From Anaerolineae bacterium (lineage in GTDB: Bacteria > Pseudomonadota > Alphaproteobacteria > DSM-16000 > Inquilinaceae), in contig JANQQD010000310.1 of assembly GCA_028285185.1 (NCBI GenBank), forward strand, positions 1-64,000: 64,000 nt of DNA. The letters run 5' to 3'. The stretch's first letter is position 1, and each line of letters begins with the position of its first letter. A program made the position numbers and the translations under genes. Positions 8,175 through 40,941 of this stretch are shown here, piece by piece. Below the pieces are notes generated by a model, which searched no databases, was not told where the DNA came from, and saw only the letters and a program-made list of their open reading frames with translations.

Positions 8175-8264
8175 GGAGACGTGGCCGAGTGGTCGAAGGC
8201 GCTCCCCTGCTAAGGGAGTAGGCGGGAAACCGTCTCGAGGGTTCGAATCCCTTCGTCTCCGCCA
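8175..8264 (+). tRNA. tRNA-Ser (anticodon GCU)
   Basis: A 90-base class II tRNA with a long variable arm. The acceptor stem is GGAGACG / CGTCTCC, the anticodon loop CTGCTAA gives GCT, and the T arm contains GGTTCGAATCC. CCA is encoded at 8262-8264. It reads AGC and AGU codons. Its 3' end is the insertion site of the element that follows: the last 17 bases are part of the att repeat and are restored intact at this end. Confidence 0.97.
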
Positions 8265-8268
8265 CTTG
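8248..8268 (+). repeat. attL: 21-base direct repeat in the tRNA-Ser 3' end
   Basis: Identical over 21 bases to 18007-18027. The copy covers the T-stem and acceptor end of tRNA-Ser plus CTTG beyond CCA. With an integrase gene starting 100 bases away it marks the left end of an integrated element. Bases on either side of the two copies differ. Confidence 0.9.
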
Positions 8269-8326: not shown

Positions 8327-8349
8327 CCTGCTACAGAACACTGCTACAG
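8327..8349 (+). promoter_or_regulatory. Direct CTGCTACAG repeats, candidate integrase arm or operator sites
   Basis: CTGCTACAG occurs twice here in direct orientation (8328-8336 and 8341-8349), just ahead of the integrase start. The same motif occurs at the other end of the element (17925-17933), there followed by its inverted copy. Placement at both ends fits arm-type integrase or excisionase sites; the left pair could also control int expression. Confidence 0.45.
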
Positions 8350-8363
8350 TGGGAGCGCCAAGG

Positions 8364-10073
8364 ATGGGCATTACTCCGCATCTCGTGCTGCGAGGCACGA
8401 CATATTGTTTTCGCATGGCTGTGCCGCGCCACCTGGTGAGAATGGTGGGCCGGGCTGAGGTCTCCACGTCTTTACGAACTGTTAACCGAAAGGAGGCGAC
8501 GCTAAGATGCCGTTACCTCAGCAATTCGTTGGACATGTTTTTTCGGGGGCTGTGCATGCAGAAAGGCCCGACATTCGAGGAGATTGACGCCGAGATAAAG
8601 GCTTACTTTCAGAAGGCCCTGAACTGGTCTTTGGAGTTCACAGAAGTCTTGATGGACGACATCACGCTGGACGCAGATACGGAAGCTGAGGGCCTGCCTA
8701 CTTTGATCAAGGATTTCCAAAGTCAGCTCAAGTCCGGCAGCTTTAGCCAAAGCGTCCAGAGCGACGCCCACGAGCTTCTGGCTCCACTCCTACCCAGCGG
8801 AGGCAAGGCTAATCTAGGGGCGATCAGACACGCCTGTCGCGGGATCGCGCTGGCCAAAATCGAACAGTATCGTCGGCTAATCGGTGATTTGACTGGCGAT
8901 TTTTCCGGCCTCGGCCAAGGCGATCCCCGATTTGCCGGTATGTTTGCAACGGGCTATCCGCCGATGAAGGGGGAAGAGGACCAATCTGGCAGCGAGACCT
9001 TGCAGTTAATTGCAACGCGTTTCCGCGATCACAAACAGGCAATCGGTGATGCCGCTAAGACAATTGCAGATTTCGATGTCACGATGCGGATCGTGTACGA
9101 GGTGATCCCGTCGAACCGTCCGATCCGAGCGGTCAGCGATGCGGATATTCGCGGGATCAGGGACCTACTCAAGCGGATGCCCCCGAACGCCCTCAAAGCC
9201 AAGGCGGCGGCTGGGAAAACCTTCTCACAACTCGCAGCTGAGAATGAGAAAGGTCCTTATCTAGCCTATGCCACGCAGGAAAAGAGGCTCAGGTTTTTCC
9301 GCACCATGCTGAACTGGGCCGCCGAGGAAGGCTATCTGGACACGGTTCCGGGGCAGAAAGTTGCCGTGGCCGGCAAAAAACAAAAGGCGCAGACGGGCGG
9401 CCCCTATTCTCGTGAGGACCTGCAAATCATATTCTCCACGCCTGTCTACACGGGACGCGCCAGCGAGGCGCGGGCAGGCACCAAGGGTGATCATGTCTTC
9501 AAAGATGCTAAGTTCTGGGTACCCTTAATTGGCTTGTTCTCAGGTATGCGGTTGGGTGAAATCGCACAGTTGCATCGGACCGATTTGAATTCCGTTGATG
9601 GGGTGTGGGTGTTCGACATCAACCGCTCCGAAGACGCCGACAAGAAGGTCAAGACTGACACCAGCCTGAGGCTGGTCCCGGTTCACCACACCTTGATTGA
9701 TTTAGGGCTCTTGGAACGCCGAGGCGACACCGCGCTTGGAAAGCAGCTCTTTCCAGAAGTCGAGCCGGGCAAGAACGGTTTCTACTCGCACAACTTCTCG
9801 AAATGGTGGAGTAGATACGGAAACACCTTTGGCTTCCACGGCGACAAGAAGGTATTTCACAGTTTCAGGCACCTGTTCACGGATGCCTTGCGCGACATAG
9901 AAGCGCCGGACTACATTCTCAAAGCGATCCTCGGTCACTCCGACAAGAGCATTACGGCCAGCTATGGTCACGGTGCAAAGCTGTCATTGCGGCAGTCATA
10001 TGTGGACAAGATCAGTTTTGATGTTCCCGCGTTAAATGACCTCATTGATCGGGAACGAGCAGTCGGAAAGTAG
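8364..10073 (+). CDS. Tyrosine-type integrase of the tRNA-Ser element (569 aa)
   Basis: Site-specific recombinase that would integrate and excise the element at tRNA-Ser. The N-terminus (HLVLRGTTYCFRMAVPRHL) matches the DUF6538-type domain seen in many alphaproteobacterial island integrases. A helical SAM-like core-binding region follows. The catalytic domain has SGMRLGEIAQLH (Arg I), HSFRHLF (HxxR) and GHSDKSITASYGH (second His and nucleophilic Tyr). The frame is open to a GTG at 8349, but the ATG at 8364 has GGAG nine bases upstream. The position directly after attL and reading away from the tRNA is standard. The catalytic set looks complete, so the enzyme may be active. Confidence 0.92.
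   Translation: MGITPHLVLRGTTYCFRMAVPRHLVRMVGRAEVSTSLRTVNRKEATLRCRYLSNSLDMFFRGLCMQKGPTFEEIDAEIKAYFQKALNWSLEFTEVLMDDITLDADTEAEGLPTLIKDFQSQLKSGSFSQSVQSDAHELLAPLLPSGGKANLGAIRHACRGIALAKIEQYRRLIGDLTGDFSGLGQGDPRFAGMFATGYPPMKGEEDQSGSETLQLIATRFRDHKQAIGDAAKTIADFDVTMRIVYEVIPSNRPIRAVSDADIRGIRDLLKRMPPNALKAKAAAGKTFSQLAAENEKGPYLAYATQEKRLRFFRTMLNWAAEEGYLDTVPGQKVAVAGKKQKAQTGGPYSREDLQIIFSTPVYTGRASEARAGTKGDHVFKDAKFWVPLIGLFSGMRLGEIAQLHRTDLNSVDGVWVFDINRSEDADKKVKTDTSLRLVPVHHTLIDLGLLERRGDTALGKQLFPEVEPGKNGFYSHNFSKWWSRYGNTFGFHGDKKVFHSFRHLFTDALRDIEAPDYILKAILGHSDKSITASYGHGAKLSLRQSYVDKISFDVPALNDLIDRERAVGK
9001..9014 (-). repeat. Copy 1 of 14-base palindrome-like repeat TGCAATTAACTGCA
   Basis: Inverted copy of the repeat found at 11093 and 12460. 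It lies inside the integrase coding region. The motif is a near-palindrome of the form TGCArTTAAyTGCA. Confidence 0.7.
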
Positions 10074-10082: not shown

Positions 10083-11054
10083 GTGGCCATCAAAATAACC
10101 AAGAAAAAGGTGTCTGCGTATAACAAGTCCCAAACACCCCCAGAAACACCGGATAAAGCTCAGCCATTCATTGATCGAATGACTGTTGGTATCAACTTCT
10201 CACCAAATGCTGCATCGGAAGCCATACACAGTAATATCTGGTCCCAATTGGCAGACACGCAGACCTACCCACCGGCGAAGACATCGGGGGGATACAGCAA
10301 AGCGTGGCGCGTTGCTGTTGTCTCAGCAGTAAAGATGAAGCACCGCCCATTCATGCAATATCGGCACGCAAACAAATGCGCTGATCGCCTATCCCTCAGC
10401 TTCTCTCCACATGATTTAGGAGACCAAGGCCTTGGCGAAATGCACATCGCGCTGAAATCCATGGTCGATAATGGCTGGGACGCGTTCATAGACGCCGGGA
10501 TGATCAGCATGATCGAGGTATCAGTCGATCTGCCCGGCGTCTCGATGAGTAACCTGCACGTTCTGCCGCAGCAGACCACGACCGTTAAGACTTGGTCCAA
10601 TTCAGGACAGCTCGAAACGGTGATGTTTGGGAAGAAAAAGGGCAACCAGACGCGCATCTATGATCGTGCGCAAAAGCGGATGGCCAAGAAGCAGGCATGG
10701 GCGAAAGGTAAGGCAACGCGGGTAGAACGTGTGCTAAGATCACAAGCTCAGCCGGTTAAATTGCTCCCCAACCTCCCCAACGCTTTCTCCCATCTGGCAT
10801 TCGTTGATCTGCCGCCAACGCCACCACCGGGGGAACCCAAAGGAAAAGAGTATGTCTGGAACCTGTTCCGTGATGCAGTCCATGTGCGCGGGCTGCCCGT
10901 GGCTCTCAAAATGCTACCCGAAGACAGCTATCGAAAGAGATACAGAAAGTGGCTCGCCCAGCATACAAAACCGTGGTGGCAACCCGAGCAAATATGGCTT
11001 GGTTGGGAGCCAATGATTGAAAAGACCCGCCTTGCCAAGAAGGGTTGGTTCTAA
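10083..11054 (+). CDS. Rep-like protein (possible rolling-circle initiator), 323 aa
   Basis: Not recognised with certainty. It starts with GTG nine bases after the integrase stop, so the two are probably cotranscribed. The middle part resembles Rep_trans/pT181-type initiators: IEVSVDL (144-150), then RIYDRAQKR (191-199) and TRVERVLR (212-219), the positions where such proteins carry a YDK-type segment and an R-x-E strand. The C-terminus is Trp- and Lys-rich (KWLAQHTKPWWQPEQIW). No full HUH motif is evident. It might initiate replication of the excised element or act as a DNA-binding accessory to the integrase. A perfect hairpin follows the stop codon directly. Confidence 0.5.
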   Translation: MAIKITKKKVSAYNKSQTPPETPDKAQPFIDRMTVGINFSPNAASEAIHSNIWSQLADTQTYPPAKTSGGYSKAWRVAVVSAVKMKHRPFMQYRHANKCADRLSLSFSPHDLGDQGLGEMHIALKSMVDNGWDAFIDAGMISMIEVSVDLPGVSMSNLHVLPQQTTTVKTWSNSGQLETVMFGKKKGNQTRIYDRAQKRMAKKQAWAKGKATRVERVLRSQAQPVKLLPNLPNAFSHLAFVDLPPTPPPGEPKGKEYVWNLFRDAVHVRGLPVALKMLPEDSYRKRYRKWLAQHTKPWWQPEQIWLGWEPMIEKTRLAKKGWF

Positions 11055-11110: not shown

Positions 11111-11289
11111 CAGCAACACATCCGAAATCGAAAGTGGAAATCCGACCGGGTTTTGCGGGGGCGAACCTAAGCCGAAATAAGGCCTACAGACCGTCATTCT
11201 GGCCGTTTTCCCTTCCATAGGTAGGCCACTGGGATACGCTTATAGAGGGTCAGATGTCCCTGATCCCCCTTGTTCCAAGGAGGGATCAT

Positions 11290-12387
11290 ATGGACACCAC
11301 GAAGAGAATAGACCCATTCCGCAACGCGTTGCTGGCGGAGGTAATTGACGGCGGGGACGTGGCTCCACCTCAGCCTCTAGACATATCGCCTTGGCTGGCG
11401 ATGAGCTTGCTCCAGAAGTCTGTCCGCCGAGGTCGCTGTGACCTTGCGTTGAAAGCTGCTGCCACCTTGCACCGAGATGCCCCGGATCGCCTGTGGCGAC
11501 GGCTCGGGGGCATTTCTTTCGAGGATATTGGCCTTGCCGATCTACAAGCCGTGGGGCTGACCACAGCCGCACTGACAGGCAAGCGGTTCCGCCGTGATCT
11601 AGGCGGGGACTGGAACGTCGCTTCGGTTGTGGTGCAGCGGCTGACGCGGAGCAGAAAGAGCCGTGCAAGCGATGATTTGTTCATGGCTCTGGAGACGCTA
11701 CCCGGTCTTGCCGTCGACCGCCGCACCCTCAGCGCCGAAACCAACCCCCGGCTGCGTCTGACCGCACTGACGACGCCCAGCCTGCACATTCGTGCCCTGT
11801 CCGTTTTGTTCCTGCTCGGCACCGACCGACCGGGGTGGAAGTTGCCCGCACGAAGGGGTGAAGTCGCGTTGGCGTTCGACCTATTGGACGAACTCGGCCC
11901 GGCCCCCACCACATTGGCGATCTGCCGCGAAGGCTACCGTAAGACGCAGGAGGCACTGCCTCCGCTGCTTGCGCTTCTGGCCTTGGAAAACGGGCTGCGG
12001 GACGAAACCACCGATGACCGAATGCCTGAAGAAGCGATGATCGGGCCGGTGCCGGGTTGGGCATTGGATATGTTCACCCGCGAAGGCAAATTTGCATTGA
12101 CCCGGTTGTTGGAGACAAATGCAGGCATAGCCGAATTTGCCCGTTCCATGGTTCCGAAGCAGAAGCAGGGTGGGTTCCTGGGGCAGGTTCTCTTTCGGGT
12201 CGAAGGCGGTGTTCTTGCCCGCCGTGTTGGGGGCGACCTCAGTGACCGGCTGCGCTCACAGCTTATGTTCGAGACGTTGGGGATAGACCCACTTGCCGCA
12301 GCTCAAGCGTTAGACCTGATGCGTCAGGATTTGCCACTGCTGAACTGCATTCGGCGGACAGTGGTCGGAGGGCAGCACAATGGGTAA
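11290..12387 (+). CDS. Protein resembling the C-terminal part of MgsA/RarA ATPases (365 aa)
   Basis: Residues about 30-85 (LLQKSVRRGRCDLALKAAAT then RLWRRLGGISFEDIGLADL) resemble the region behind the AAA+ domain of MgsA/RarA replication-fork proteins, where it serves in oligomerisation. No Walker A or B motif is present, so the ATPase part is absent and the protein cannot be a full RarA. The ATG at 11290 has AAGGAGG six bases upstream and is preferred to the earlier frame-open GTG. The stop overlaps the next recombinase gene by eight bases, which suggests translational coupling. It may be an accessory to recombination or replication of the element; this is inference. Confidence 0.55.
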   Translation: MDTTKRIDPFRNALLAEVIDGGDVAPPQPLDISPWLAMSLLQKSVRRGRCDLALKAAATLHRDAPDRLWRRLGGISFEDIGLADLQAVGLTTAALTGKRFRRDLGGDWNVASVVVQRLTRSRKSRASDDLFMALETLPGLAVDRRTLSAETNPRLRLTALTTPSLHIRALSVLFLLGTDRPGWKLPARRGEVALAFDLLDELGPAPTTLAICREGYRKTQEALPPLLALLALENGLRDETTDDRMPEEAMIGPVPGWALDMFTREGKFALTRLLETNAGIAEFARSMVPKQKQGGFLGQVLFRVEGGVLARRVGGDLSDRLRSQLMFETLGIDPLAAAQALDLMRQDLPLLNCIRRTVVGGQHNG

Positions 12388-13372
12388 CACCTTCGGCCCC
12401 TCCGATAACATTCACATATCGAAGCCTCAGACCCCGGTCAGAGCGAACGCCAGCCCGATTGCAATTAACTGCAATCATCCAGCGGATGCACGCCTGCACA
12501 AGCTGATCTCGGCCAGCCTCTCGGAAAACACCAAGCGGGCATACATGGGCGACCTAGCCCACTTCCTAGAGGCAGGCGGTGAACTCCCTGCATCCCCTGA
12601 CGATGTTGCTCTTTACCTCTCGCGCTTTGCTGACAAGCTGGCGGTGTCGACGCTGACCCGTCGTGTTGCGACACTGGGGAAAGTCCATAAGGCCAATTGT
12701 TGGCCGAACCCGTGTCAAACCGAACTGGTGAAGTCAGTCATGCGTGGCATCCAGCGGACGCATGGTGGAAATCAGCATCAGGCCAAGCCCCTCTGCCGTG
12801 AAGACCTGTTTCTGGTCCTCGACGCGATGGGAGAGACACGCAGGGACATCAGGGACAAAGCCTTGCTTCTGACCGGGTTCGCGGGAGGGTTTCGACGCTC
12901 CGAATTGGTGGGCTTGAACTGGTCCGATGTTGAAGAAGTCCGCGAAGGCGCGGTGATAACGCTGCGCCGTTCTAAGACCGATCAGACCGGGGTTGGGCGC
13001 AAGGTGGGGGTGCCCCTTGGGCGAACGCGGCATTGTCCGGTTCGCGCTTTGCTGGCTTGGCGTGATGTTGCTGGCAACATTGGGCAAGCGGTCTTTAGGC
13101 CAGTCGATTGGCTGGGTCGCATTCAGGATACCCGCCTGTCTGGTGAGGCTGTCCCGATCATTCTGCGAGAGCGAATGGTCGCAGCGGGGTTGGACCCAAC
13201 CGGGTTCTCCGGCCACTCGCTTCGAGCGGGATTTGCCACCAGCGCAGCTAAGGCGGGTGTCGCCTCCTACAAGATCAGGCAGCAAACTGGGCACAAGTCC
13301 GACGCGATGCTGGGCCGCTATATCCGCGACGGCGAACTGTTCGAGGGCAACGCGGCGGGGGTGCTTCTGTGA
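12380..13372 (+). CDS. Second tyrosine recombinase (330 aa)
   Basis: Phage-integrase family enzyme with a SAM-like core-binding domain (about 40-125) and a catalytic domain with FRRSEL (Arg172/173), HSLRAGF (His279, Arg282), GHKSD (His305) and Tyr314 in MLGRYIR. It is shorter than the main integrase and lacks its N-terminal domain. Its start overlaps the MgsA-C-like gene, so the two are probably made together. Proteins of this shape often sit as cargo recombinases in alphaproteobacterial elements and need not be the enzyme that integrates the island. Codons 27-32 lie over copy 3 of the 14-base repeat, so the gene may be under local control. Confidence 0.88.
   Translation: MGNTFGPSDNIHISKPQTPVRANASPIAINCNHPADARLHKLISASLSENTKRAYMGDLAHFLEAGGELPASPDDVALYLSRFADKLAVSTLTRRVATLGKVHKANCWPNPCQTELVKSVMRGIQRTHGGNQHQAKPLCREDLFLVLDAMGETRRDIRDKALLLTGFAGGFRRSELVGLNWSDVEEVREGAVITLRRSKTDQTGVGRKVGVPLGRTRHCPVRALLAWRDVAGNIGQAVFRPVDWLGRIQDTRLSGEAVPIILRERMVAAGLDPTGFSGHSLRAGFATSAAKAGVASYKIRQQTGHKSDAMLGRYIRDGELFEGNAAGVLL
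12460..12477 (+). repeat. Copy 3 of TGCAATTAACTGCA repeat
   Basis: The same 18 bases as copy 2, here inside the first part of the second recombinase gene. Confidence 0.7.
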
Positions 13373-13389: not shown

Positions 13390-13716
13390 TTACAGGCGCT
13401 TCCCGGCCAATGCCTCCACCTGCACCGCGACAACCTCAAGAACACCGTCAGAGACGCCCTGAGCGGCGGATTGGACACGTTGCAGCAGGAGGTCGCGCGG
13501 AGAGGCCGTTGGCGGTACTTCGAGGCCAAGAAGTTGATTGGGCGTAACACCCAGCGCCTCGGCGATCCGAACGAGTGTGGCGAGGTCAGGTTCCCGATCC
13601 CCGCTGACATAATGCGCATAGCGCCGCTCGCTGAGACCGCTACGCCGCGCAGCCTCAGCATTGGAGATACCCAGTTCCTCCGCTCGATTTCTCAAATTTC
13701 GACAAAACGCATCCAT
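13390..13716 (-). CDS. XRE-family HTH transcriptional regulator (108 aa)
   Basis: Cro/C1-type repressor. The helix-turn-helix lies at about residues 10-64 (EAARRSGLSERRYAHYVSGD, then LVRIAEALGVTPNQLLGLE). The frame is open to 13803, but that longer form would run through repeats that look like operators and would overlap the divergent gene. I therefore prefer the ATG at 13716, giving a protein that starts MDAFCRNLRNRAEEL. It points against the recombinase and away from the small exported protein. Its likely task is to repress itself and the divergent gene. Confidence 0.85.
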   Translation of the reverse strand: MDAFCRNLRNRAEELGISNAEAARRSGLSERRYAHYVSGDREPDLATLVRIAEALGVTPNQLLGLEVPPTASPRDLLLQRVQSAAQGVSDGVLEVVAVQVEALAGKRL

Positions 13717-13717
13717 A

Positions 13718-13788
13718 GGAACGTTTTGTTCTGGAAAAACGGAACGTTCCATGAACTTATCGGGGTGACACGTAAGCCCATTTTGTTC
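13718..13788. promoter_or_regulatory. Operator-like repeats between XRE gene and divergent exported protein
   Basis: GGAACGTT occurs at 13718 and again at 13741, where it forms the perfect palindrome GGAACGTTCC. TTTTGTTC occurs at 13724-13731 and again at 13781-13788. Such paired sites directly upstream of an XRE gene are typical of its own operators. Confidence 0.45.
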
Positions 13789-13802
13789 CTGAGAGGTGTT
13801 CA

Positions 13803-14210
13803 ATGAAAATCATGTTGTTTGCCTGCACTGTCGCAACGGCAATTGCGGTGACTGCTGTTTCAGCGCAGAACCGCGAAATCATTCAGATAAATGACGGTCA
13901 GCTGATCGTTTGTAGTAATCTTGCCGCTACGCAGACCATGTATGCGCTGGCTGCGAACAACAGAGTGCAGCATGTAGACGGGTGCTGGGTCATAGAAGCG
14001 CCGATGGAGGTTATCGTTCTGCAAGACGGTCCCCGCATCAGCAGCATCACGTACCGCAGGTTCAGGGGTGAGGACGTAATCGCGCAAATGATCGAGAATG
14101 GACTTTCGGAAGACAGTGAGAGTGTCCAACGGGTTCGCGACAATCCTTGGACGGAGTGGTATGCCCGCCCTGCCTGGGCATTCACTGCGTGGCTCGAACC
14201 GAGCGGCTAA
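13803..14210 (+). CDS. Small exported protein of unknown function (135 aa)
   Basis: Not recognised. Residues 1-21 (MKIMLFACTVATAIAVTAVSA) form a Sec signal peptide, so the mature part of about 114 residues is likely periplasmic. It contains two Cys (CSNLAATQ and DGCWVIEAP) that could form one disulfide. AGAGG lies upstream of the ATG. It is divergent from the XRE repressor and probably under its control. The 194 bases between its stop and the next gene hold no recognisable signal. Confidence 0.6.
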   Translation: MKIMLFACTVATAIAVTAVSAQNREIIQINDGQLIVCSNLAATQTMYALAANNRVQHVDGCWVIEAPMEVIVLQDGPRISSITYRRFRGEDVIAQMIENGLSEDSESVQRVRDNPWTEWYARPAWAFTAWLEPSG

Positions 14211-14404: not shown

Positions 14405-16126
14405 ATGGACGATAGAGATGACTTGAGGCGGACCATAGTCGAAGGAGATGCCGCCGGACGTCTTATCTCGACCATTCTTGACCTAGAATACAAAGATAGA
14501 AAGCAAGAACTCGGGGCTTTTCTAGCTGAGCTGCATAACGCAGGTGAAATTTCCCTGCTTTCCGCCACTAATCTTCGGGCAATTGAAGAACTTCAACACA
14601 ATAGCTTTTGGATGGTGTTTGGCGCGTTGTCTGACGCAATTGAGCATGTGACAGATGACTATCCCGCTGTTCAGCGATTTACTGAATGTTTGGTCGAAAG
14701 AGCAGGCAATGATGGGGCTTCTAACACACCATTTGTGTCATTCGTCCGTTGGTGCGAAAAACATCCCCCAAAGGCCAGAGAAATCATACTGGGTGCAAAA
14801 GACGGCCAAGCAGATTGCCAACGGTCTTGTGTTTTTGCTTTGCAAGGCCTCAATGACTTTGGGTGCTTGGTAGACTTTGTAGGGGACGGTAGAGCAGAAA
14901 TCCGATCCATTGGTTTTCGTGCCTTAGGAAGGCTCAAAAATATGACAACACAGGATGACCAAACCGGCATAGATGCTTGTCTGACGGAAATTCAGAACTC
15001 GTCTTCGGATGATGCGAGGAATGCTGCAATTGAAGCTGTCTTTCGCGTTTGGGACAATGACGCGACCGAAGAAAAATATAGGCAAGACGAGGTGATGAAG
15101 TCTCTTCTCGACAAGCCGACCGATGAAGACTTGGTGCGTCTGTGCGCGATGCTGTTTTATCACAAGAATGCATCCACAGAGAAAACCATCAGCGCGATAT
15201 TAAATAGGTCGCAAGGAATATCCTCAAGTTTCGAGGCAGCAAGTAACTGGATAGAAAGCGCCCTAACTTGGAAAGATGACCGTTGGTCGTTCAAGCAGGT
15301 AGTTGCATTCATGGAAGCCATGGTTCCGCGCTTTGAGCAGCCAGCAAAAAGCAAGCAGTTCCACAGCTTTATCGAATGGGTTTTTGCTGACCCTAAAAAT
15401 TCGTCATATTTATTTGCCCGATGGCTTAATTCTGGCGACTTTTCCTTGTGCAGCTTCCTAGCTGAGATGATCAGCAGCGGTGACAAGGGAACCGCGCTAG
15501 CACTCCAGCCGCAAGACTTACCCCACGAAGCCGTCGATCAAGTCTTCCTAGCCAGAAAATGTATAGGGTTCCTCTGGCTGCATGAGATTACAGCGGCCTC
15601 CATTCTCCTTAGTCTTGTTGAACATGGGCATCCCGATGCCGTTCCTGAGATCGAAGGACTGCTTTGGGAGCCGCTTCTGCTTAGCTACTCTAGTGAGCTT
15701 AGGCCGTATCTTGAGCAGCAGGCGTCTAGTGCTTCTCCGACTGTAGCTAAGGCATCTCAAGACCTAACAGCACGACACAAGGCGTATATTGAGGGATTGC
15801 AGAACGCGGAGGAGATAAGCGAGCTCGAACCTTCAAATGAAGCGAGGCGAGCAGCTGCGATCAAAGACCACCAGCGGAACACCGATATTCAAAAGCAAGC
15901 TCGGCAGATGTCAGTGTTTGCTAGTTTGGTTCACAACGTCACAATGCTATACGGAAGCAAGAGTTTGACCATGATCACGGGTACCGACGGCCAACGGTTT
16001 CCAAGCATTAGCCCACTGAGCGAACACTCCTACAGCTTTGAGTTCCCTCGGTTGTCGGTCGTTGACCCGGTTGGGTTTAATGCTTTTCTGACGATTTGTA
16101 GGGTCGAGCAGAGAAAAGTAAAATGA
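14405..16126 (+). CDS. Large alpha-helical protein with HEAT-like repeats, cargo gene 1 (573 aa)
   Basis: Not recognised. The sequence is almost entirely helical; residues about 135-220 (FALQGLNDFG, IRSIGFRALGRLKN, RNAAIEAVFRVWDND) have the spacing of HEAT-like repeats. No nucleotide-binding motif or membrane segment is seen. The C-terminal 60 residues look like a separate beta-containing domain (YGSKSLTMITGTDGQRFPS). The stop overlaps the next start by four bases (ATGA), so the two are surely one translational unit. GC content is visibly lower than in neighbouring core genes. Its place at the end of an integrated element, beside a nuclease-like partner, suggests a defence or stability role, which is inference. 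Confidence 0.6.
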   Translation: MDDRDDLRRTIVEGDAAGRLISTILDLEYKDRKQELGAFLAELHNAGEISLLSATNLRAIEELQHNSFWMVFGALSDAIEHVTDDYPAVQRFTECLVERAGNDGASNTPFVSFVRWCEKHPPKAREIILGAKDGQADCQRSCVFALQGLNDFGCLVDFVGDGRAEIRSIGFRALGRLKNMTTQDDQTGIDACLTEIQNSSSDDARNAAIEAVFRVWDNDATEEKYRQDEVMKSLLDKPTDEDLVRLCAMLFYHKNASTEKTISAILNRSQGISSSFEAASNWIESALTWKDDRWSFKQVVAFMEAMVPRFEQPAKSKQFHSFIEWVFADPKNSSYLFARWLNSGDFSLCSFLAEMISSGDKGTALALQPQDLPHEAVDQVFLARKCIGFLWLHEITAASILLSLVEHGHPDAVPEIEGLLWEPLLLSYSSELRPYLEQQASSASPTVAKASQDLTARHKAYIEGLQNAEEISELEPSNEARRAAAIKDHQRNTDIQKQARQMSVFASLVHNVTMLYGSKSLTMITGTDGQRFPSISPLSEHSYSFEFPRLSVVDPVGFNAFLTICRVEQRKVK

Positions 16127-17835
16127 AGCTGATACTTAAAGAATATCTCGCGTCTCTTAGGGAGCGCGGTGACCTTGACAAAGCGTTGCTACCCAACCTG
16201 CTGTCCGCCATGGGTTTGCAGGTTCTGAAAACTCCAATGATCGGCACTCGCCAAGATGGTGTTGATATATCTGCCGTAGGTCAGCTGCAAGGCGATGACC
16301 GGAAATACCTCTATTTGCTCTGCGTGAAGGCAGGAGACGTGGGCCGTAGCGATTGGGATGCAGGGCCGCAGTCAGTGCGTCCAGAGTTGCAGGAAATATT
16401 GGATGTCTACATAGGCTCAAAAATCGCAAAAGAGCATCAAGATCTTCCGATCAAAATATGCTTGTGCATGGGTGGTGAGCTGAAGGAAACCGTTGAGGGC
16501 AATTGGGCTGGTTTCACGCGGAAGAACGCGACTAGCGAACTCTGCTTCGAGCTATGGAACGGGGATCGCCTTGCTGGATTTATGGAGAAATCCCTACTGG
16601 CTCGGGAGTTATTGGAAGAAGAGGCGCGAAGACATTTTCAGAAAGCCCTCGCAATGGTGAATGAACCAGAGGCTTGCTACGAGTATACCAGAAGCCTCAT
16701 CGCGATCATCCTCCCGCGAGAGGAGTTGAAGGACAAAGAGCGTCTATTGCGGCTTAGGCAGGCGTTTATTTGTCTCCATGCCATTTGCGCCTGGGCGGTT
16801 GAAGCAAAAAGCCTTGATGTCGTTTATCGAATAACTGAATTGGGTTTGCTGTTCTGCTGGGATGCCATGCGAGAACAACCAATCAAACCTAAGCCCACCA
16901 AGCATCAAATCGCCTTGACAGAAATTCTAGACCAGTACGTCCGGCTCTACCTTATGATGTCCGAGATGTACTTTGAGAAGGTGCTCTATCCACATGCTGA
17001 AACGCTTCATGCTTTGACCGTTTCGGTAAAGTCGCGGGAAGCAGTCGATGCCAATCTTGCGATGTTCGAACTGCTTGGGCGAGCGGCTACCCGCGCAATC
17101 TGGACGGACTTGTTCGGAAAAGCCCTCTCGGAGGCAAACCCTGATTTTGCTCGCAGCCTGAGCGAACAGACTTCGAAGATGCTAGACATGTTGGTTGCCC
17201 TGCTTAACAACAACCCGACTTTAGGGTCTCCGTTCAAGGACGATCATATGATCGAGGCAGCCTTGGTTATGTATCTTGCGCAACAGACATCGTCAGGGAG
17301 GCGATTTATGCCGTGGTTCCATGCCATGGCTGAGAACACCTCGTTCGCTCTGTTAACCAATGCCAGTTATCCAACATGCTTGCGCGATTACAGCGATCTG
17401 CTTGCGCACCCTGCGAGCAATGAGCAGGAGTATCGAAACGAGGCGTGTGTGGGAAGTGTCTTGCACCCGTATCTGTTTATTTGGCTCCAGTACAGTGCCG
17501 AACAAAACTCCATTGAAGAATTTTCAAAACGACTTTCGCAACAAATTCCGAACTGCACATATCAGGCATGGTTCCCTGATGAGGAAACGGATCACAAAAT
17601 CTGGCGTGGAGAAACATACCATGGGATTTGCGTGACTGACCTTTCGCCATCGCGTGGACATGCGGAGATAGCGGATACCTTGAACCTCGCTATTAAGGAA
17701 TGTGGGGCAATTCTCGAAATGACAGCGATCAAACGCGGACTGGTGCCACTTTTCTTAACGGCGTGCAGGCACCATCGTTTGCCAATCCCGCCAACACTTT
17801 GGATGCCGCCTCAAGAAGGTTCAGGGCAAGCGTGA
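16123..17835 (+). CDS. Protein with Mrr-like nuclease N-terminus and helical C-terminus, cargo gene 2 (570 aa)
   Basis: Residues about 20-90 look like a PD-(D/E)xK fold: LLPNLLSAMGLQV helix, GTRQDGVDIS with Asp45 and Asp48, a beta strand YLYLLCVKAGD with Lys69, then RSDWD and SVRPELQEILDVYI. Mrr-type enzymes have QxK in place of ExK; here it is CxK, so activity needs testing. From about 160 onward the protein is helical with no other motif recognised. It overlaps the upstream gene by four bases. It is the last gene of the element before attR. A two-protein nuclease plus sensor arrangement is plausible but not shown. Confidence 0.6.
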   Translation: MKLILKEYLASLRERGDLDKALLPNLLSAMGLQVLKTPMIGTRQDGVDISAVGQLQGDDRKYLYLLCVKAGDVGRSDWDAGPQSVRPELQEILDVYIGSKIAKEHQDLPIKICLCMGGELKETVEGNWAGFTRKNATSELCFELWNGDRLAGFMEKSLLARELLEEEARRHFQKALAMVNEPEACYEYTRSLIAIILPREELKDKERLLRLRQAFICLHAICAWAVEAKSLDVVYRITELGLLFCWDAMREQPIKPKPTKHQIALTEILDQYVRLYLMMSEMYFEKVLYPHAETLHALTVSVKSREAVDANLAMFELLGRAATRAIWTDLFGKALSEANPDFARSLSEQTSKMLDMLVALLNNNPTLGSPFKDDHMIEAALVMYLAQQTSSGRRFMPWFHAMAENTSFALLTNASYPTCLRDYSDLLAHPASNEQEYRNEACVGSVLHPYLFIWLQYSAEQNSIEEFSKRLSQQIPNCTYQAWFPDEETDHKIWRGETYHGICVTDLSPSRGHAEIADTLNLAIKECGAILEMTAIKRGLVPLFLTACRHHRLPIPPTLWMPPQEGSGQA

Positions 17836-18006: not shown

Positions 18007-18027
18007 TCCCTTCGTCTCCGCCACTTG
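18007..18027 (+). repeat. attR: 21-base direct repeat
   Basis: Exact copy of 8248-8268, containing the acceptor end of tRNA-Ser but not the rest of the gene. It marks the right end of the element that begins at the tRNA. Confidence 0.9.
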
Positions 18028-18294: not shown

Positions 18295-20889
18295 TCACAC
18301 GGCGTAGTCATCCGCGACGGCACTCTCGTATAGAGCCTTGACGGACGTCGCGCTTTCGACCGCGGCTCGCACCGCCTCTTCCTTAAGATCCAGAACGCGA
18401 AAGCCTTCGCCCACCTTCGCGATCGCATCTATTCGGCGGAAGGTCTCGCCGTAGGTCGCAGCATACTTCGCAAGGCCCTTCAGCTTTGGGATCGAGTCAC
18501 CGAACTGCGTCCCGTGCGGGTCGACGATGTCGGCTGCGATTGACCCATCTGCCAGCTTCGCGAAGAAGATAAAGTCGGGCCGCACAATCTTGACGTCCCC
18601 GCCGTCCTCGTAGGTCACGCCGAGAGAGTCCTGGCTGGCGCGAGACGGATTTCGATACCACGCGATCGTTCCCGCGCGCTTCAGCTCTGCGGACAGAACG
18701 TCTCCCTCCCACGAATTGAAGTCCTCTGGGAACATGCCATCCTCGGCGCACAACAGGTGCCTTTCGAAGCGTGGCAGCGGGGTCTCCGACCCATCCGCTT
18801 CTCGCACGGTCGTGGGCTGCATCCACGAAGCTGGCTTGGCCAGGTCGACATCCAAAGGATGAGCGCTCATCTCTCGGATCTGGCGATAGACCTCTTGGCG
18901 CTCGTCCGAGAGGCTCTTGATCTCGATCCGGTGGTGCGTGAGCCACTTGTTCGCGAGGCTCTCTGCCTCTGTCTCGAGGTACTCCTTCACTTCCGGCACC
19001 AGCCCGAGCGCAGCGACCGTGACACGCGCCTCGATCAACGCAGCTTCAAGGTCGCCATCGTCGCCCTCAGCCTTCGCTAGAGATTCACTGTAGGACGTTG
19101 CAAGATCCGGGCTGATGGTACGCCCTGCACGGCGGTATGCATCATCGATCACCGCGAAATCTGCAGCCTCGAGGAAGTCATCGAACGACATCTCTCGTGT
19201 CTCCAGATCGGTCTTGAGGCTCTTGCCTTCGACCGTCATCACCGTCTTGCGAGCCTTCGCGATCTCCGACTTGTAGCGCTCTCGCGCGGCGTTCAGCACC
19301 TTGTGCATCTCTGCATGGGCCTTCTTGCCGGCCTCCGGCAGGAGCCCGTCAGCAGCAAGTTCGTGGGCCAGCGACGTCAGGCGCTTCACGGGCTTGGCCT
19401 GGCGCTTCGGCAGCGACTGCGACGGAAGAGAGAGCAGCTTGTCCCAGACCGCCTCCGGAATCGCCGGGTTCGGCTTCATCTCGTCAGGGTTGACCAGCAC
19501 GCGCCGGCCGGGGAGCTCTTCGCCCCCGTCGCCGCCAGACATCAGCGCCTTGGCGACATCCTTCACGGACTGCGCGTCGAAGAATGGCAACAGGCAGTCA
19601 ACGGCGTTGAGCCGCTCGTTGCCCGGGATCCTCCTGGCAAGCGGCGTACGGACCATGCGGCCGAGAAGCTGCGTGATATGCGTTCTGTCCTTCGCGGGAC
19701 GGAACGACACCATCACCTCGGCCCTCGGACAGTCCCAGCCAGTGCTGATCGCGTCCTTGGCGATCAGAACGCGGACCCACGTCGACTCCTGCACGCGCTC
19801 CGGCGAGATGTAGGGGATCGAGTGGCTGCCGAAGGTCTGGGTCGTGTGGTCACCGAAAACATGGGCCACCGCGTCGTCGCCGAGCTCGGGCCAGCGCTCG
19901 TAGATCGTATCAAGAGCACGTCCGATCTCGTCGTGATCTGGTGAGTTCGGCACCTGCAGAACCATCAGCGGCGCCACGGTATCGGCATCGTCCTGCTGCT
20001 TGGCGTACTCCTCCCAGGCAGCCGTGATCTCCTTCAGCTTGTCGGTTCCGCGTCGGACCAGCACGGTATCGAACTGGCCGACCTCGTTGGGCACGTCGAG
20101 AATGATCGTGTCCTTCAGCAGGCCCGAGGCCTGCACCTTGCCGGAGTCGACCATCACGTTGGGAAGTGTGGCTCGGCCCTGCATGTCGGCCATGGCGGCG
20201 TTGAATCGCTCGACCGTTGCCGAGATGCCGAGAACGATCGGGATACCGGGCACCGAGCCGGATCCGTTGATCAGCCGCTTCACGATGGTTGTCTTCTCGC
20301 CGCCGCCATTCCCGCCCGAGGCCTTCATCCCGCGGTGTGCCTCGTCGAGGACGAGGTAGAGGGTCAGGTTCGGGTCCTCGATGGTGTTCTGGATCGTGTC
20401 CCAGATCGTGAAGGCGCGCATGTCGGGCATAACAGTCTGGCGGCCGTCCGTTTCGACACCCGGATCGTCAGGGTCGTGGCCGCGCACCAGCAAGCTCGAT
20501 TTGCTCAGCTTCTGCGTGTTCAGGAAATAGACCTTCCCCGCCTCGAGCTTCTCGCGGTTGAAGGTGTTCTGCACGATCACAAGGTCCGACAGCGTCAGAC
20601 GGTCGGAGGCCTCACGCAAACGGAAATGCGACTGAGCGTTCAGCGCAGGGTCATCGCTGAACCAGATCACGACCGCGCCGGGATCGGGCTCGAAGTCGAA
20701 ATTGTCATCGCCATGGAACAGCGCCTCGAACACGGCCGCGGCCATGACGGTCTTGCCGGCGCCGGTAGTCGCCGTGAGCGAGAAGGCGTGCCGGTCCCCA
20801 TCCTCGTGCCAGCGCTTCGCGGCCTTGCGGAGGTTGGTTAGCACATCCTTGACGGCATATTCCTGGTAATCTTTCAGCGTGAACTTCAT
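18295..20889 (-). CDS. res: Type III-like restriction enzyme Res subunit, DEAH helicase (864 aa)
   Basis: ATP-dependent translocase/helicase partner of the adjacent methyltransferase. Walker A is TGAGKT (42-47), the DEAH box is at 182-185, and the second RecA domain has DAISTGWDCPRAEVMVSF and QLLGRMVRTP (motifs V-VI). The C-terminal part has RPDFIFF followed by AADIVDPHG and PKLKGLAKY. This is where type III Res enzymes carry a PD...ExK nuclease, but a normal ExK is not seen; the metal site may be altered. It starts three bases after the mod stop, so the two are one operon. Together they would recognise, methylate and cut unmodified foreign DNA. Confidence 0.85.
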   Translation of the reverse strand: MKFTLKDYQEYAVKDVLTNLRKAAKRWHEDGDRHAFSLTATTGAGKTVMAAAVFEALFHGDDNFDFEPDPGAVVIWFSDDPALNAQSHFRLREASDRLTLSDLVIVQNTFNREKLEAGKVYFLNTQKLSKSSLLVRGHDPDDPGVETDGRQTVMPDMRAFTIWDTIQNTIEDPNLTLYLVLDEAHRGMKASGGNGGGEKTTIVKRLINGSGSVPGIPIVLGISATVERFNAAMADMQGRATLPNVMVDSGKVQASGLLKDTIILDVPNEVGQFDTVLVRRGTDKLKEITAAWEEYAKQQDDADTVAPLMVLQVPNSPDHDEIGRALDTIYERWPELGDDAVAHVFGDHTTQTFGSHSIPYISPERVQESTWVRVLIAKDAISTGWDCPRAEVMVSFRPAKDRTHITQLLGRMVRTPLARRIPGNERLNAVDCLLPFFDAQSVKDVAKALMSGGDGGEELPGRRVLVNPDEMKPNPAIPEAVWDKLLSLPSQSLPKRQAKPVKRLTSLAHELAADGLLPEAGKKAHAEMHKVLNAARERYKSEIAKARKTVMTVEGKSLKTDLETREMSFDDFLEAADFAVIDDAYRRAGRTISPDLATSYSESLAKAEGDDGDLEAALIEARVTVAALGLVPEVKEYLETEAESLANKWLTHHRIEIKSLSDERQEVYRQIREMSAHPLDVDLAKPASWMQPTTVREADGSETPLPRFERHLLCAEDGMFPEDFNSWEGDVLSAELKRAGTIAWYRNPSRASQDSLGVTYEDGGDVKIVRPDFIFFAKLADGSIAADIVDPHGTQFGDSIPKLKGLAKYAATYGETFRRIDAIAKVGEGFRVLDLKEEAVRAAVESATSVKALYESAVADDYAV

Positions 20890-20892
20890 GGG

Positions 20893-23034
20893 TTAGCGGC
20901 CCATCGAAAAGCGAAAATTGGAAAGATACGACTCGTAGAGCCGGATCGGCTCGACAGAGTCAGGCAGCCTGCGCGCGACGGATTGAAAGCGTCGGTCGTC
21001 GTCGGTGACGATAAATGCGATGCGCAACCCGTCGCAGGCATCGACCGCGTCGCAGAACTCCGCCGAGCGGTCCAGGTCTACCAGCAGCCCATACGTCTCG
21101 GCGACGGCCCAGCCCTGATCCGGCAGCGCATCAATCCGGCTTCCCTCTGCGCCCGCACGCATCCAGAGGAGCGGCGCTATGCGCTGAAAGGCGAGGTTGT
21201 GATGTACCGCGACCGGCGTCTCGTAGGTCAGCGTGAAGAACTCGGCGTTCTCTTCGAAGCCCTCGGTCATCGGGAACTCGTCGGTGAACTTGTAGTCGCC
21301 GTCGATGTCTTCGCCCTCGGGCGTCTTGCCTGTGATCGCGGCTCTGATCCGGGGCTTCGTGATGTAGTCGCAGATGCCGAGCTGCTCCCATTCGGCATCT
21401 CCTGGACGGAGCCCGCTCTTCTTCAAAGTCGCTTGCTCTGTCGCTCGAACTTCATTGTTTGTAACGCAGATGGATTGCCGGCGTCCTCCGTCTTGGCGAT
21501 TGAGCCGCATTACGGCATGAGCCGTCGTTCCGGACCCACTGAAGAAATCGAGCACAACAGCGTTCGGCTTCCCTCGGACAACGACCCTGAGCGCGTCTTC
21601 CACAGCATAAAGACTCTTGGGGAATGGAAAGGCCCGGCCGTTTCCTAGAAGTGCGCCAACTAGATCTGTTCCGTATGCACCTGCGTCGTGGCTTGTCCGA
21701 TGCCAGACCGTTCTCACCTTCCGAGTTGCCGCTCCGGCATACGCTACGTCCGCAACACCCGTTATCGGGTCGCAAGATAAGACTGAGAGAATACCCTCTT
21801 CAATTTCGGCCCTATGCTGCTCCGTAAGGTATGTAATGCCCCAAGATCGCCGCTTTTTATCGTAGCGACCTAATGCTACGTATCCATTCTTGACCAAGTT
21901 GTTGAACGTATCTACTCCCACACCCCAGCGACCAAGACTCAAGTCTTTTCTCACAGGCCAAACGGCTGTGTTTCCTTCTTCGTCTCTAAGTTCGAAATCC
22001 GGCTCTTTGTCGAGCGGGAGATATTCCCCAGCTCTAATAATCTTCTTTGACTTTGGGTTTATCCAGACCGGATAGAACATTTGCTCACGATCTTTTCGCT
22101 GCGCCTCATCGCCTGAACGAAGCAAACCCTTCCATCGTGGGCGTGAAAGACCATCCTCGGTCTCTTTGGTCTCCCTGAAGGTAAGCAAATCATCATCGGC
22201 AGAGTAGATCGTGCATTCAGGGCCAAAACAGAAGAAGGCATATTCCTCAACTCGTGACAGATAACCTTGGGTGACACCCTTCGGGTTGTTCACGATTGTT
22301 ACCTGTTGGATGGTGAACCCTTGAAGGGTTTGCTCCAGCAACAGTCCAAGTCGCCTTACCTCATGTTCGTCAATCGTAACGATCAATGCGCCCGATGGCT
22401 TCAAGAGGTTTTTTGCAACCAAAAGGCGGCGCTCCATGAACGCGAGCCATTTAGAGTGCCGGTAAAGATCGTCGTCGCCAACATAATTATTGTTGTACTT
22501 CCAATCGCTAGCGCCGGAATTGTAGGGTGGGTCTATGTAAATCGCATCGACCTTTCCGCGGTGCGTATAGGTCAACGCTTCCAGAACGTGAAAATTCTCG
22601 CCGTTGATCACGGTGTGGTAGGGCTTGTCGCCGCCGCGCTCGACCTTCCCGGTGCTGACCAGCCCCGGATAGATGTAGTCGCGGAACTCTGCGACCACGA
22701 CGAGGTTATCGGTCGCGACGTCAGCCGTCTCGGGCTCTGCGGCGTCGATCAGCGAGACATGTGCGGTGCGCTTGCCGTCGTCTTCGTCGATGCGGAGCAC
22801 CTTCCACAGCCGCGGGTCGCCCTTGGCCGTGGAACCGCGCGGCGGCAGGATGCGCACCTTGTCTCCCCTGCGGATCGGCCGACCCGGCAGCTCCACGCTC
22901 TCGGGCCGGTGCCGTTCGAAGTTGAGACCGAAGGCGCGGCGCGACGCCAGCGCCTTGAATTCCCGCTCCAGCTCGTCTCCGAGAGCTCGATCCTTCGCCT
23001 TCGCCCGTGCGATCAGATCCGTCAGTCGCGACAC
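20893..23034 (-). CDS. mod: Type III-like site-specific DNA methyltransferase Mod (713 aa)
   Basis: Modifies adenine (or N4-cytosine) at the recognition site of the restriction pair. The order DPPY (168-171, in AIYIDPPYNSG) before the SAM-binding FFSGSGTTAHAV near residue 500 is that of beta-class amino-methyltransferases, to which type III Mod belongs. A beta-rich N-terminal segment (residues 45-120) and the region between the motifs probably read the target sequence. The start is GTG at 23034 behind AGAGG. GC content falls in the middle of the gene (about 21450-22550), which fits an exchanged target-recognition region. Confidence 0.9.
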   Translation of the reverse strand: MSRLTDLIARAKAKDRALGDELEREFKALASRRAFGLNFERHRPESVELPGRPIRRGDKVRILPPRGSTAKGDPRLWKVLRIDEDDGKRTAHVSLIDAAEPETADVATDNLVVVAEFRDYIYPGLVSTGKVERGGDKPYHTVINGENFHVLEALTYTHRGKVDAIYIDPPYNSGASDWKYNNNYVGDDDLYRHSKWLAFMERRLLVAKNLLKPSGALIVTIDEHEVRRLGLLLEQTLQGFTIQQVTIVNNPKGVTQGYLSRVEEYAFFCFGPECTIYSADDDLLTFRETKETEDGLSRPRWKGLLRSGDEAQRKDREQMFYPVWINPKSKKIIRAGEYLPLDKEPDFELRDEEGNTAVWPVRKDLSLGRWGVGVDTFNNLVKNGYVALGRYDKKRRSWGITYLTEQHRAEIEEGILSVLSCDPITGVADVAYAGAATRKVRTVWHRTSHDAGAYGTDLVGALLGNGRAFPFPKSLYAVEDALRVVVRGKPNAVVLDFFSGSGTTAHAVMRLNRQDGGRRQSICVTNNEVRATEQATLKKSGLRPGDAEWEQLGICDYITKPRIRAAITGKTPEGEDIDGDYKFTDEFPMTEGFEENAEFFTLTYETPVAVHHNLAFQRIAPLLWMRAGAEGSRIDALPDQGWAVAETYGLLVDLDRSAEFCDAVDACDGLRIAFIVTDDDRRFQSVARRLPDSVEPIRLYESYLSNFRFSMGR

Positions 23035-23372
23035 GCTGAAACCTCTTTCATCTCAATACTTGCTGACCAGGATGCCCAAGTCGCGCCCGGACGCCACCCG
23101 GTCCGTCGCGCCGAGTCGCGCGGAGACGCTTGGGCTGGTTGGCCCAAGATCGGACAAGGCTGGAGGGATCGCGCGCATGGCGGTCATCGTGGTCGCTCTC
23201 ATTTCACAGCAGGCGGCGGCATTGCCGGACGCCCCGGATTTGAGCTGACATTCCCGCCGTTTACGCCTGCAGACTAAGCCGCGCCGGCCTCCTTCCGCAA
23301 GTCGAATGCCCAGTCGCGGCCCCTCCGGAGCCGATGACGTCGCGCATTTCGGCTGCGCTCGGGGCCTCACCG
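23035..23372. other. 338 bases without a supported gene
   Basis: Spacer between mod and the truncated upstream gene. Open frames here are antisense or lack a start and codon signal. I see no repeat or hairpin of note; the mod promoter may lie near its right side. Confidence 0.4.
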
Positions 23373-24092
23373 CTACAGGGGAAGCGCGTCTTGGCGTGTG
23401 TCGTCCACGCGCAGGACGCCCAGCAGCTGCCAGGTGTGCGGGCGCTTCGCCATGTTGCCAACGCAGAAGAGCATGCCCTTCTTCGGGTATTCGTCGTTGA
23501 ACGTTGTGCTCATCCACTCGAGCGCTGCACGCTCTGACCCCTCGCGACGTTTTCCAAAGAAGAACATGGCATGGGCCTCCCAGTCGCCGTTCGCATAATC
23601 GTGCGGACCAGTGCCGTCCTCGAACTTGAAGCGGAACTCGTAGGGGCTTGGCTCCAACGCCTTCAGTTCTTCGTCGAAGAAATCGCCCTGGCTTGCGGCC
23701 TGCCGATAAGTCTCGCGCTCTGCCTCAATCTGCTCAGACGATTTTGCCTTGTAGTAGAAGCGCGTGTTTCTCGGCCGGATCAAAGCCAGGGATCTACCAG
23801 CTTCAGCGGCTTCCGCCACAGACTTCGACACGAGTGGATCAAGGAAGGCGGCTCGATCTTTGCGCGGCATGCAACCGTCCCGCTTGATCGATTCTTCGGC
23901 GACATGGCAGCTTTCGCTACGATTGTCGCGTGTCGGTCTGCGATACTTGAAATTCACCCAATCCCAACGCTTGAAGGCAGACTCATCGGAAAGCTGGCGG
24001 AATCGCACTGGATAAAGCCGCTTGAACTCGCCGCGGGCAGTCACCTCGGCGCAGCAGACCGTTTCCCCGTGAGAGGTACTACGCTGCGGTAG
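23373..24092 (-). pseudogene. Unrecognised RM-associated protein, 5' end removed by IS
   Basis: The frame from 24044 (GTG) gives 223 aa, but coding-like sequence continues upstream as LPQRSTSHGETVCCAEV to 24092, two bases from the IS end. The segment HGETVCCAEVTARGEFKRL followed by YPVRFR looks like the start of a family in which a KTYP-like strand comes first, so the start codon and about ten residues are probably lost. Later parts read RWDWVNFKYRRP and a C-terminal LGVLRVDD. The function of the family is not known to me. It is upstream of mod and res on the same strand, so it is likely a third gene of that locus. Re-initiation at the GTG could still give a shortened protein. Confidence 0.55.
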
Positions 24093-24135: not shown

Positions 24136-24876
24136 CTAGATTGTCTCGGGCACGGGTGGTCGCATTCCCAGGGCCTCGTGGGGACGGATCCGATTGTATT
24201 GACGGAGCCATGCGTTGATGACGGTCTGTGCCTGTCGGGTTGTAGCGAACCACTCAGCGTTCAAGACTTCTTGACGGAGGGTGCCGTTGAATCGCTCATT
24301 GTAGCCGTTTTCCCAGGGCGATCCGGGTAGGATGCGGATCGGGTCGATACCGACGCGCTTCAGCCAAGTCTGCAGGGGCTCGGCGATGAACTCCGGGCCG
24401 TTGTCAGAGCGCAGGTGATCCGGCGCACCCCTCTGGACAATAAGCGGCGCCAGGGCTTCAACCACCTCGTGTGCCCCCATCTTCGTGGCGACTTGGACGC
24501 AGAGGGCTTCCCTGGTGAACTCGTCGAGAACAGTGAGCATTTTGTAGGGTCGACCGCTGCTCAAGCGGTCGTGCACGAGATCGACGGACCAGACGTGGTT
24601 GGGGTATTTGGGCCGGAGCCGGATCACCGATGCATCGTGGTGGTAGAGCCGTTTGTGCTTCTTGTGCCGTTCCGGGAGCTGCAACCCTTCTTCGCGCCAG
24701 AGCCTCTCGACCTTCTTGTGATTGATCCGCCAGCCTTCAGCGCGGAGGAGTTCACCCACCTTGCGATAGCCGTAGCGACCATACTTCTTGGCCAATCGGA
24801 TCATGGCCAGGCGCAGCGCGTCGTCGTCCTTGGGTTCGGACTTGTATTGCATCGTTGACCGCGCCACGCCCATCAC
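24136..24876 (-). CDS. IS3-family transposase OrfB (DDE integrase core, 246 aa as an independent frame)
   Basis: Catalytic part of the transposase. It contains an HTH_21-like segment (KYGRYGYRKVGELLRAEGW), the DDE core with VDLVHDRLS (first Asp), SDNGPEF (second Asp) and PWENGYNERFNGTLRQE (Glu), and the end NAWLRQYNRIRPHEALG. The frame continues upstream as EAEGLSKDQLRQAVVYTRQ, joining orfA by a -1 shift at the T6 run read from 24972 to 24967, so the true product is the OrfAB fusion. All catalytic residues are present; the copy may be active. Confidence 0.93.
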   Translation of the reverse strand: MMGVARSTMQYKSEPKDDDALRLAMIRLAKKYGRYGYRKVGELLRAEGWRINHKKVERLWREEGLQLPERHKKHKRLYHHDASVIRLRPKYPNHVWSVDLVHDRLSSGRPYKMLTVLDEFTREALCVQVATKMGAHEVVEALAPLIVQRGAPDHLRSDNGPEFIAEPLQTWLKRVGIDPIRILPGSPWENGYNERFNGTLRQEVLNAEWFATTRQAQTVINAWLRQYNRIRPHEALGMRPPVPETI

Positions 24877-28264: not shown

Positions 28265-28265
28265 C

Positions 28266-32047: not shown

Positions 32048-32051
32048 TTTG

Positions 32052-34667: not shown

Positions 34668-34684
34668 TCCGCTCCCCTCCGTTC

Positions 34685-36727: not shown

Positions 36728-36817
36728 CGAGCGACTGTGAAGTTTGATTAACTAACGGGATCATTGCAAAAACTTTCCCTGCCAGAAACAACAAACTCAC
36801 TTCTTTCGTGAGGGCCT
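36728..36817. promoter_or_regulatory. Divergent promoter region of the unknown cluster
   Basis: 90 AT-rich bases between the starts of protein H (minus) and protein I (plus). It must hold promoters for both; no clear operator repeat is seen. GAGG at the right end is the ribosome binding site of protein I. Confidence 0.5.
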
Positions 36818-38005: not shown

Positions 38006-38012
38006 CATTGCA

Positions 38013-40760: not shown

Positions 40761-40941
40761 TATTGCCTCTGTACTGTTCAATCAAGCGAATGGCATTTTT
40801 TGTAGAATGACTTGGCAGGGGTTGTGCAAACACTGGCACCCTCGTCTTTCATCATCTAGCGCAGGCTAGGCATCTGGGGTCCAGACTGCTGTCCTTCTCG
40901 CCGCTAGGCAACAAAATTTCATCTTGAAGGATCGGGTACCC

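What the first reader, a model, noticed from the sequence alone, without database searches (positions are those of the whole stretch)
14405..17835. Two-gene cargo: HEAT-like protein coupled to an Mrr-like nuclease protein
The two genes overlap by ATGA, are low in GC, and are the only long cargo of an integrated element. The second has GVDIS...LCVK near its N-terminus, the layout of Mrr-like PD-(D/E)xK nucleases with Cys in the place of Gln or Glu, followed by 400 helical residues. Large helical sensor plus nuclease is a common plan for anti-phage systems, but this pair matches none that I know.
Basis: partly seen in the sequence, partly recalled or inferred. Interest (0 to 1): 0.68.

Follow-up and report, generated by a model that had tools for sequence, protein, structure and literature searches.

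The report
Olokun anti-phage pair on mobile element
The two genes are a copy of Olokun, a bacterial anti-phage defence system already described, made of a spring-shaped partner protein and a likely DNA-cutting protein with an unusual active site, carried on a small mobile DNA element.

Summary
The two-gene unit is real, but it is not new: it is an Olokun system. OloA (14405-16126) and OloB (16123-17835) match the PADLOC profiles almost end to end (E 8e-80 and 1.5e-161). Pfam and NCBIfam have no model for either. OloA is a HEAT-type solenoid. OloB begins with an Mrr/FokI-like PD-(D/E)xK fold followed by helices. Over 42 aligned OloB rows, D48 and K69 are invariant, and position 67, where Mrr has Gln, is S/C/V/T/I/L and never D, E, Q or N. 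The pair lies on a 9.8-kb element bounded by a 21-bp repeat of the tRNA-Ser 3' end. Relatives at 80-86% DNA identity share only the oloAB cassette, also across bacterial classes. In a Ruegeria genome the whole element is one integrase plus oloAB. The mechanism of Olokun was not found in the papers searched. I favour a HEAT sensor or adaptor that licenses an atypical nuclease. Side results: a short-OloA subtype on Klebsiella-type plasmids, and the family-wide non-canonical active site.

The parts
8175..8264 (+). tRNA-Ser (GCT), integration site of the element
   Evidence: ARAGORN
8248..8268 (+). left att repeat (21 bp, exact) at the tRNA 3' end
   Evidence: exact repeat search
8349..10073 (+). 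tyrosine integrase (DUF6538 + Phage_integrase) of the carrier element
   Evidence: Pfam PF20172 and PF00589 over cut-off
14405..16126 (+). oloA: 573-aa HEAT-type solenoid with a conserved C-terminal tail
   Evidence: PADLOC OloA 8e-80; model pLDDT 84.9; HEAT relatives by profile and fold
15812..16123 (+). OloA residues 470-573: the best conserved part, also kept in the short-OloA variant; S503, L515, G517, P548 and P555 invariant in 24 sequences
16123..17835 (+). oloB: 570-aa putative nuclease, start overlaps the oloA stop by 4 nt
   Evidence: PADLOC OloB 1.5e-161; model pLDDT 86.0, pTM 0.80
16123..16617 (+). OloB residues 1-165: Mrr/FokI-like PD-(D/E)xK domain
   Evidence: topology, VIA-align to FokI, MspJI, AF1548, hhalign to Mrr_cat
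16264..16329 (+). active-site stretch D48 ... C67-V-K69
   Evidence: D48 and K69 in 42 of 42 rows; position 67 never D/E/Q/N
18007..18027 (+). right att repeat (21 bp, exact)

Best explanation
The pair is an Olokun anti-phage system (oloA-oloB) carried by a tRNA-Ser-integrated element. Shown by computation: family membership, overlapping genes, joint inheritance, HEAT solenoid in OloA, PD-(D/E)xK fold with invariant D48 and K69 in OloB, and spread as a two-gene cassette between elements. Inferred: OloA and OloB form a complex; the variable HEAT array of OloA recognises an infection signal or holds OloB inactive; on infection the OloB nuclease cuts nucleic acid. Because the usual Glu/Gln of (E/Q)xK is missing family-wide, the invariant helix acids E14 and D19 (D19 aligns with the conserved helix Glu of Mrr) probably complete the metal site. 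Identity as Olokun is about 0.97 likely; the nuclease mechanism about 0.55.
For: PADLOC OloA/OloB full length. OloA: hmmsearch of its profile hits artificial HEAT proteins at 3e-10 and YibA at 0.0012; Foldseek hits PP2A scaffold and importins, best E 3.4e-4. OloB residues 1-163: FokI cleavage domain Z 10.8 over 146 residues at 3.9 A, AF1548 Z 9.1, MspJI Z 8.4; hhalign to 19 Mrr_cat sequences probability 80.7, E 1.3e-5, controls (OloB C-terminal part, OloA) probability 0.1. E14, D19, D48, K69, G71 and R75 in 42 of 42 rows. OloA and OloB distances correlate at r 0.95 over 28 pairs, 0 of 2000 permutations reach it. All 11 plasmid records with an OloA match also have OloB. DNA homology to 8 close loci covers oloAB and nothing else of the element.
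Against: No activity was measured. Foldseek alone gave no OloB match in the PDB with E <= 0.001, and the VIA rows for residues 1-163 (Z 7-11) overlap the range of unrelated helical rows. The canonical second acid or Gln is absent in 42 of 42 rows, so the domain could be a dead nuclease used for DNA binding. No search found a published mechanism. Joint inheritance does not prove a physical complex. That OloA is the sensor is an analogy.
Confidence: 0.65

Rival explanations
1. OloB's N-terminal domain is a pseudo-nuclease that binds DNA or phage nucleic acid without cutting it; the effector activity lies in the C-terminal helical part or in OloA.
For: The catalytic (E/Q) position is lost in 42 of 42 rows; Pfam Mrr_cat does not recognise the domain.
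Against: D48 and K69 stay invariant down to 23-28% identity to the window protein, which is unusual for a dead enzyme; position 67 is Ser or Cys in 31 of 42 rows, not random.
Confidence: 0.25
2. Olokun is an effector module that can be driven by a CBASS cyclase, as suggested by a Burkholderia ubonensis plasmid where a CD-NTase gene precedes oloB.
For: L030: SMODS cyclase, a 174-aa protein, a 141-aa OloA C-terminal piece and OloB in one run of adjoining genes (and blastp).
Against: Two of the three other relatives of the 174-aa protein are annotated as SLATT domain proteins, so cyclase plus SLATT looks like a complete CBASS by itself (recalled); OloA is cut to its tail there and OloB is split by an IS3. 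This is one of 34 OloB plasmid records, and reads as a broken remnant.
Confidence: 0.04
3. A housekeeping or plasmid-maintenance pair rather than defence.
For: No experiment was done here; several relatives sit on large plasmids.
Against: Sparse: 5 of 385 and 9 of 398 genomes matched, weak and broken matches included; 0 of 14 control genomes in each; neighbours include type III R-M genes, a CBASS-type cyclase and TIR/SIR2 genes; the family is listed as a defence system in print (passages).
Confidence: 0.03

Closest known systems
Olokun (OloA/OloB; Millman et al. 2022, recalled; paper not held)
   Same: Both genes, order and overlap, full-length profile matches
   Different: Nothing essential found; the window copy is a new member at 91% or lower OloB identity to the other copies aligned
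Mrr_cat-type restriction nucleases (Pfam PF04471), MspJI, FokI cleavage domain
   Same: Fold topology, helix acid, GxD, K, and the W-NGDRL motif aligned to Mrr's LIDGD-L
   Different: No Gln/Glu before the Lys in 42 of 42 rows; no Pfam match; a C-terminal helical region of about 400 residues instead of a DNA-reading domain (the latter recalled)
Lamassu LmuA and Upx (defence proteins with solved structures)
   Same: VIA-align rows over the nuclease part, Z 7.2 and 7.4
   Different: Different partner proteins and architectures (recalled); Z is in the range of chance arrangements

Membership tests
Olokun | full-length OloA profile match | tested here: met
   267.7 bits, residues 8-571 vs profile 8-595 of 596
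Olokun | full-length OloB profile match | tested here: met
   537.2 bits, residues 1-562 vs profile 1-552 of 556
Olokun | the two genes adjacent, oloA first | tested here: met
   4-nt ATGA overlap at 16123
Olokun | protects cells from phage | not testable with these tools
   needs plating
Pfam Mrr_cat (PF04471) | score over the curated cut-off | tested here: not met
   no Pfam match to OloB up to E 1; only profile-profile similarity, probability 80.7
Pfam Mrr_cat (PF04471) | (E/Q)xK motif after GxD | tested here: not met
   D48 and K69 present, the E/Q position is Cys here and S/C/V/T/I/L over 42 rows
PD-(D/E)xK fold superfamily | alpha-beta-beta-beta-alpha-beta core with Asp and Lys on adjacent strands | tested here: met
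   predicted topology H17-29 E33-36 E49-53 E62-69 H85-99 E110-116 H122-135 E140-145; VIA rows to FokI and MspJI; a model, not a solved structure
HEAT repeat proteins | Pfam HEAT model over the cut-off | tested here: not met
   no Pfam match to window OloA
HEAT repeat proteins | superhelix of paired helices | tested here: met
   model and matches to PP2A scaffold and importins, profile match to artificial HEAT proteins
CBASS effector | cyclase gene in the same operon | tested here: not met
   none among the element's ORFs tested; the cyclase next to oloB in L030 is beside a broken copy

The most novel reading that the evidence does not exclude
OloB founds a lineage of Mrr-like nucleases whose catalytic centre has been rebuilt: the (E/Q)xK position is Ser/Cys or a small or hydrophobic residue in all members, and the metal site is completed by the invariant helix acids E14 and D19 (perhaps with Q83). 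The system also has a short-OloA subtype with about half the HEAT array, which would show that the OloA tail plus OloB is the core effector and that the array is a tunable sensor.
Probability: 0.35. Interest if true: 0.5.

Novelty: new member of a known kind. Interest (0 to 1): 0.3.

Why it matters
Olokun is listed as uncharacterised or of unknown mechanism in the papers seen (passages in PMC12926258, and PMC12592470). The alignment gives precise residues to test (E14, D19, D48, K69, and 67 as the odd position), and a natural short-OloA variant, so the open question of how Olokun works becomes testable with few mutants.

Tried and rejected
Rejected: 'unknown pair'. Rejected: CBASS-driven Olokun in L030; the 174-aa neighbour has relatives annotated as SLATT, and both olo genes are broken there. 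Rejected: a third gene upstream of short OloA; homology between L024, L025 and L077 begins around the short oloA start. Phage records gave no match with two OloB queries. Whole-model Foldseek of OloB against PDB and BFVD was dominated by the helical part, with no match at E <= 0.001. An empty-site comparison was tried with the flank left of the element; in the listed relatives the GTPase-gene part and the tRNA part of the query matched at separate places, so no empty site could be shown. The genome hit G471 (L078) was not reproduced by my own OloB profile and was dropped; G255 (L041) is a weak partial match and G605 (L079) a remnant, both dropped. Rows left out of the 42-row count: L007 and L009 (broken or truncated), L036 (taken as a duplicate of L034 from its identical match values), L001 and L040 (the window itself); the fragment of L030 was kept in. 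For the Mrr comparison, one search listed 26 places and gave 24 loci; L069 (partial) was not extracted and 4 of the 23 extracted (L063, L068, L070, L071) were dropped as weak or doubtful.

The names and roles of the MspJI Gln and FokI acid, the SLATT function and 'Millman 2022' for the first report are recalled; for papers I saw search listings and the passages named by call, none in full.

Full report
WHAT IS THERE. The window holds oloA (14405-16126, 573 aa) and oloB (16123-17835, 570 aa), coupled by an ATGA overlap. The stretch has GC 0.50-0.52 against 0.66-0.71 in the first 8 kb. PADLOC names both at once: OloA, 267.7 bits, E 8e-80, and OloB, 537.2 bits, E 1.5e-161, each nearly end to end. 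These are the two genes of Olokun.

CARRIER. tRNA-Ser (GCT) lies at 8175-8264. A 21-bp exact direct repeat, the tRNA 3' end plus a few bases, lies at 8248-8268 and 18007-18027, so the element is about 9.8 kb. It carries a tyrosine integrase directly inside the left end (8349-10073), a second XerC/D-like recombinase (12380-13372), an XRE regulator (13390-13803, minus), two ORFs without a curated family over its cut-off (10083-11054, 11254-12387) and oloAB. The pair is thus nearly, but not quite, the only cargo.

THE CASSETTE MOVES BY ITSELF. Against eight close loci (L002-L007, L009, L010), DNA identity is 80-86% and lies within 14435-17815, that is oloAB and nothing else of the element. tRNA genes lie on four of these loci, all different: Phe, Ala, Cys and Arg. 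In Ruegeria pomeroyi (L006) a 44-bp repeat of the tRNA-Cys 3' part frames a stretch of about 5.7 kb that holds one tyrosine integrase and oloAB. The OloB tree puts the window copy in a fully supported group of seven with four named alphaproteobacterial copies and with Halomonas and Salinicola, which are gammaproteobacteria (classes recalled), so transfer between classes looks recent. Six viral contigs carry oloB. 34 of 72,556 plasmid records match OloB and 11 match OloA, all 11 among the 34. Phage records gave none.

OLOA. The model (pLDDT 84.9) is a helical solenoid to about residue 470, then a long helix and a low-confidence hairpin tail. Its profile matches artificial HEAT repeat proteins (3e-10) and YibA (0.0012), and Foldseek finds the PP2A scaffold and importins. 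The tail is the best conserved part (0.54 and 0.52 mean column conservation in 501-573 against 0.39-0.49 before).

OLOB. The model (pLDDT 86.0, pTM 0.80) has the PD-(D/E)xK order of helices and strands in residues 17-158, with D48 just before one strand and K69 at the end of the next. VIA-align gives, for residues 1-163, the FokI cleavage domain (Z 10.8, 146 residues, 3.9 A), MspJI (Z 8.4, residues 1-165) and AF1548 (Z 9.1, model range 12-223). Z of 8-11 is suggestive by the tool's own notes, not proof; Foldseek alone had no match at E <= 0.001. The independent sequence test agrees: hhalign of OloB 1-170 to 19 Mrr_cat sequences gives probability 80.7, E 1.3e-5, against 0.1 for the two controls, and it pairs D19 with the Mrr helix Glu, D48 with the GxD Asp, K69 with the Lys, and W145-NGDRL with the LIDGD-L motif.

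ACTIVE SITE. In 42 OloB rows E14, D19, G46, D48, K69, G71 and R75 never vary, and Q83 varies once. Position 67 is Ser 20, Cys 11, Val 4, Thr 3, Ile 3, Leu 1. Either another residue (E14 or D19) completes the metal site or the domain does not cut. The strict conservation of D48 and K69 favours the first.

ONE UNIT. OloA and OloB distances correlate at r 0.95 over 28 pairs (0 of 2000 permutations reach it), and 21 of 28 junctions are 4-nt overlaps. This shows joint inheritance; a complex is inferred.

VARIANTS. 21 of the 34 plasmid records, from Klebsiella and two related genera, match only the first 190 or so residues. No upstream gene is shared. This is a short-OloA form of Olokun.

MECHANISM. 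Most likely: OloA and OloB act together; the HEAT array senses or restrains, the OloB nuclease cuts. Steps shown: family, folds by model, conserved residues, gene overlap. Steps inferred: complex, trigger, cutting. In print: Olokun is filed under nuclease activity, validated or predicted, in a table of PMC10855318 (passage), with unknown mechanism in PMC12926258 (passage) and as not thoroughly characterised in PMC12592470 (passage). Searches found no mechanism or structure paper in the held library; subscription papers are mostly not held.

VERDICT. A new member of a known system, with a sharp, testable point on its active site.

Noticed in passing
18295-24044: Next to the right att site: a type III-like restriction helicase (ResIII), a type III methyltransferase (PADLOC MTase_III, 897 bits) and a PDC-M19B-like protein, so a second defence cluster abuts the Olokun element.
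   Followed up: partly
26610-40781: A long run of mostly minus-strand genes (coiled-coil-like proteins of 168-282 aa, then 563, 871, 680, 395 and 922 aa) with no Pfam family over a curated cut-off and no strong PADLOC match in the 8 tested.
   Followed up: partly
24136-24876: A transposase with integrase core (rve) domains between the type III cluster and that run.
   Followed up: no
L006 4363-10022: An element of about 5.7 kb at tRNA-Cys that holds only a tyrosine integrase and oloAB: a very compact mobile defence unit.
   Followed up: partly
L030 2979-8039: CBASS-type cyclase plus SLATT-like gene butting onto an OloA tail and an IS3-split OloB: a new defence system seems to have replaced the front of an old one.
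   Followed up: partly
L007 4864-9431: OloB in Paracoccus kondratievae is split by an insert with a 573-aa ORF.
   Followed up: no
   Followed up: partly
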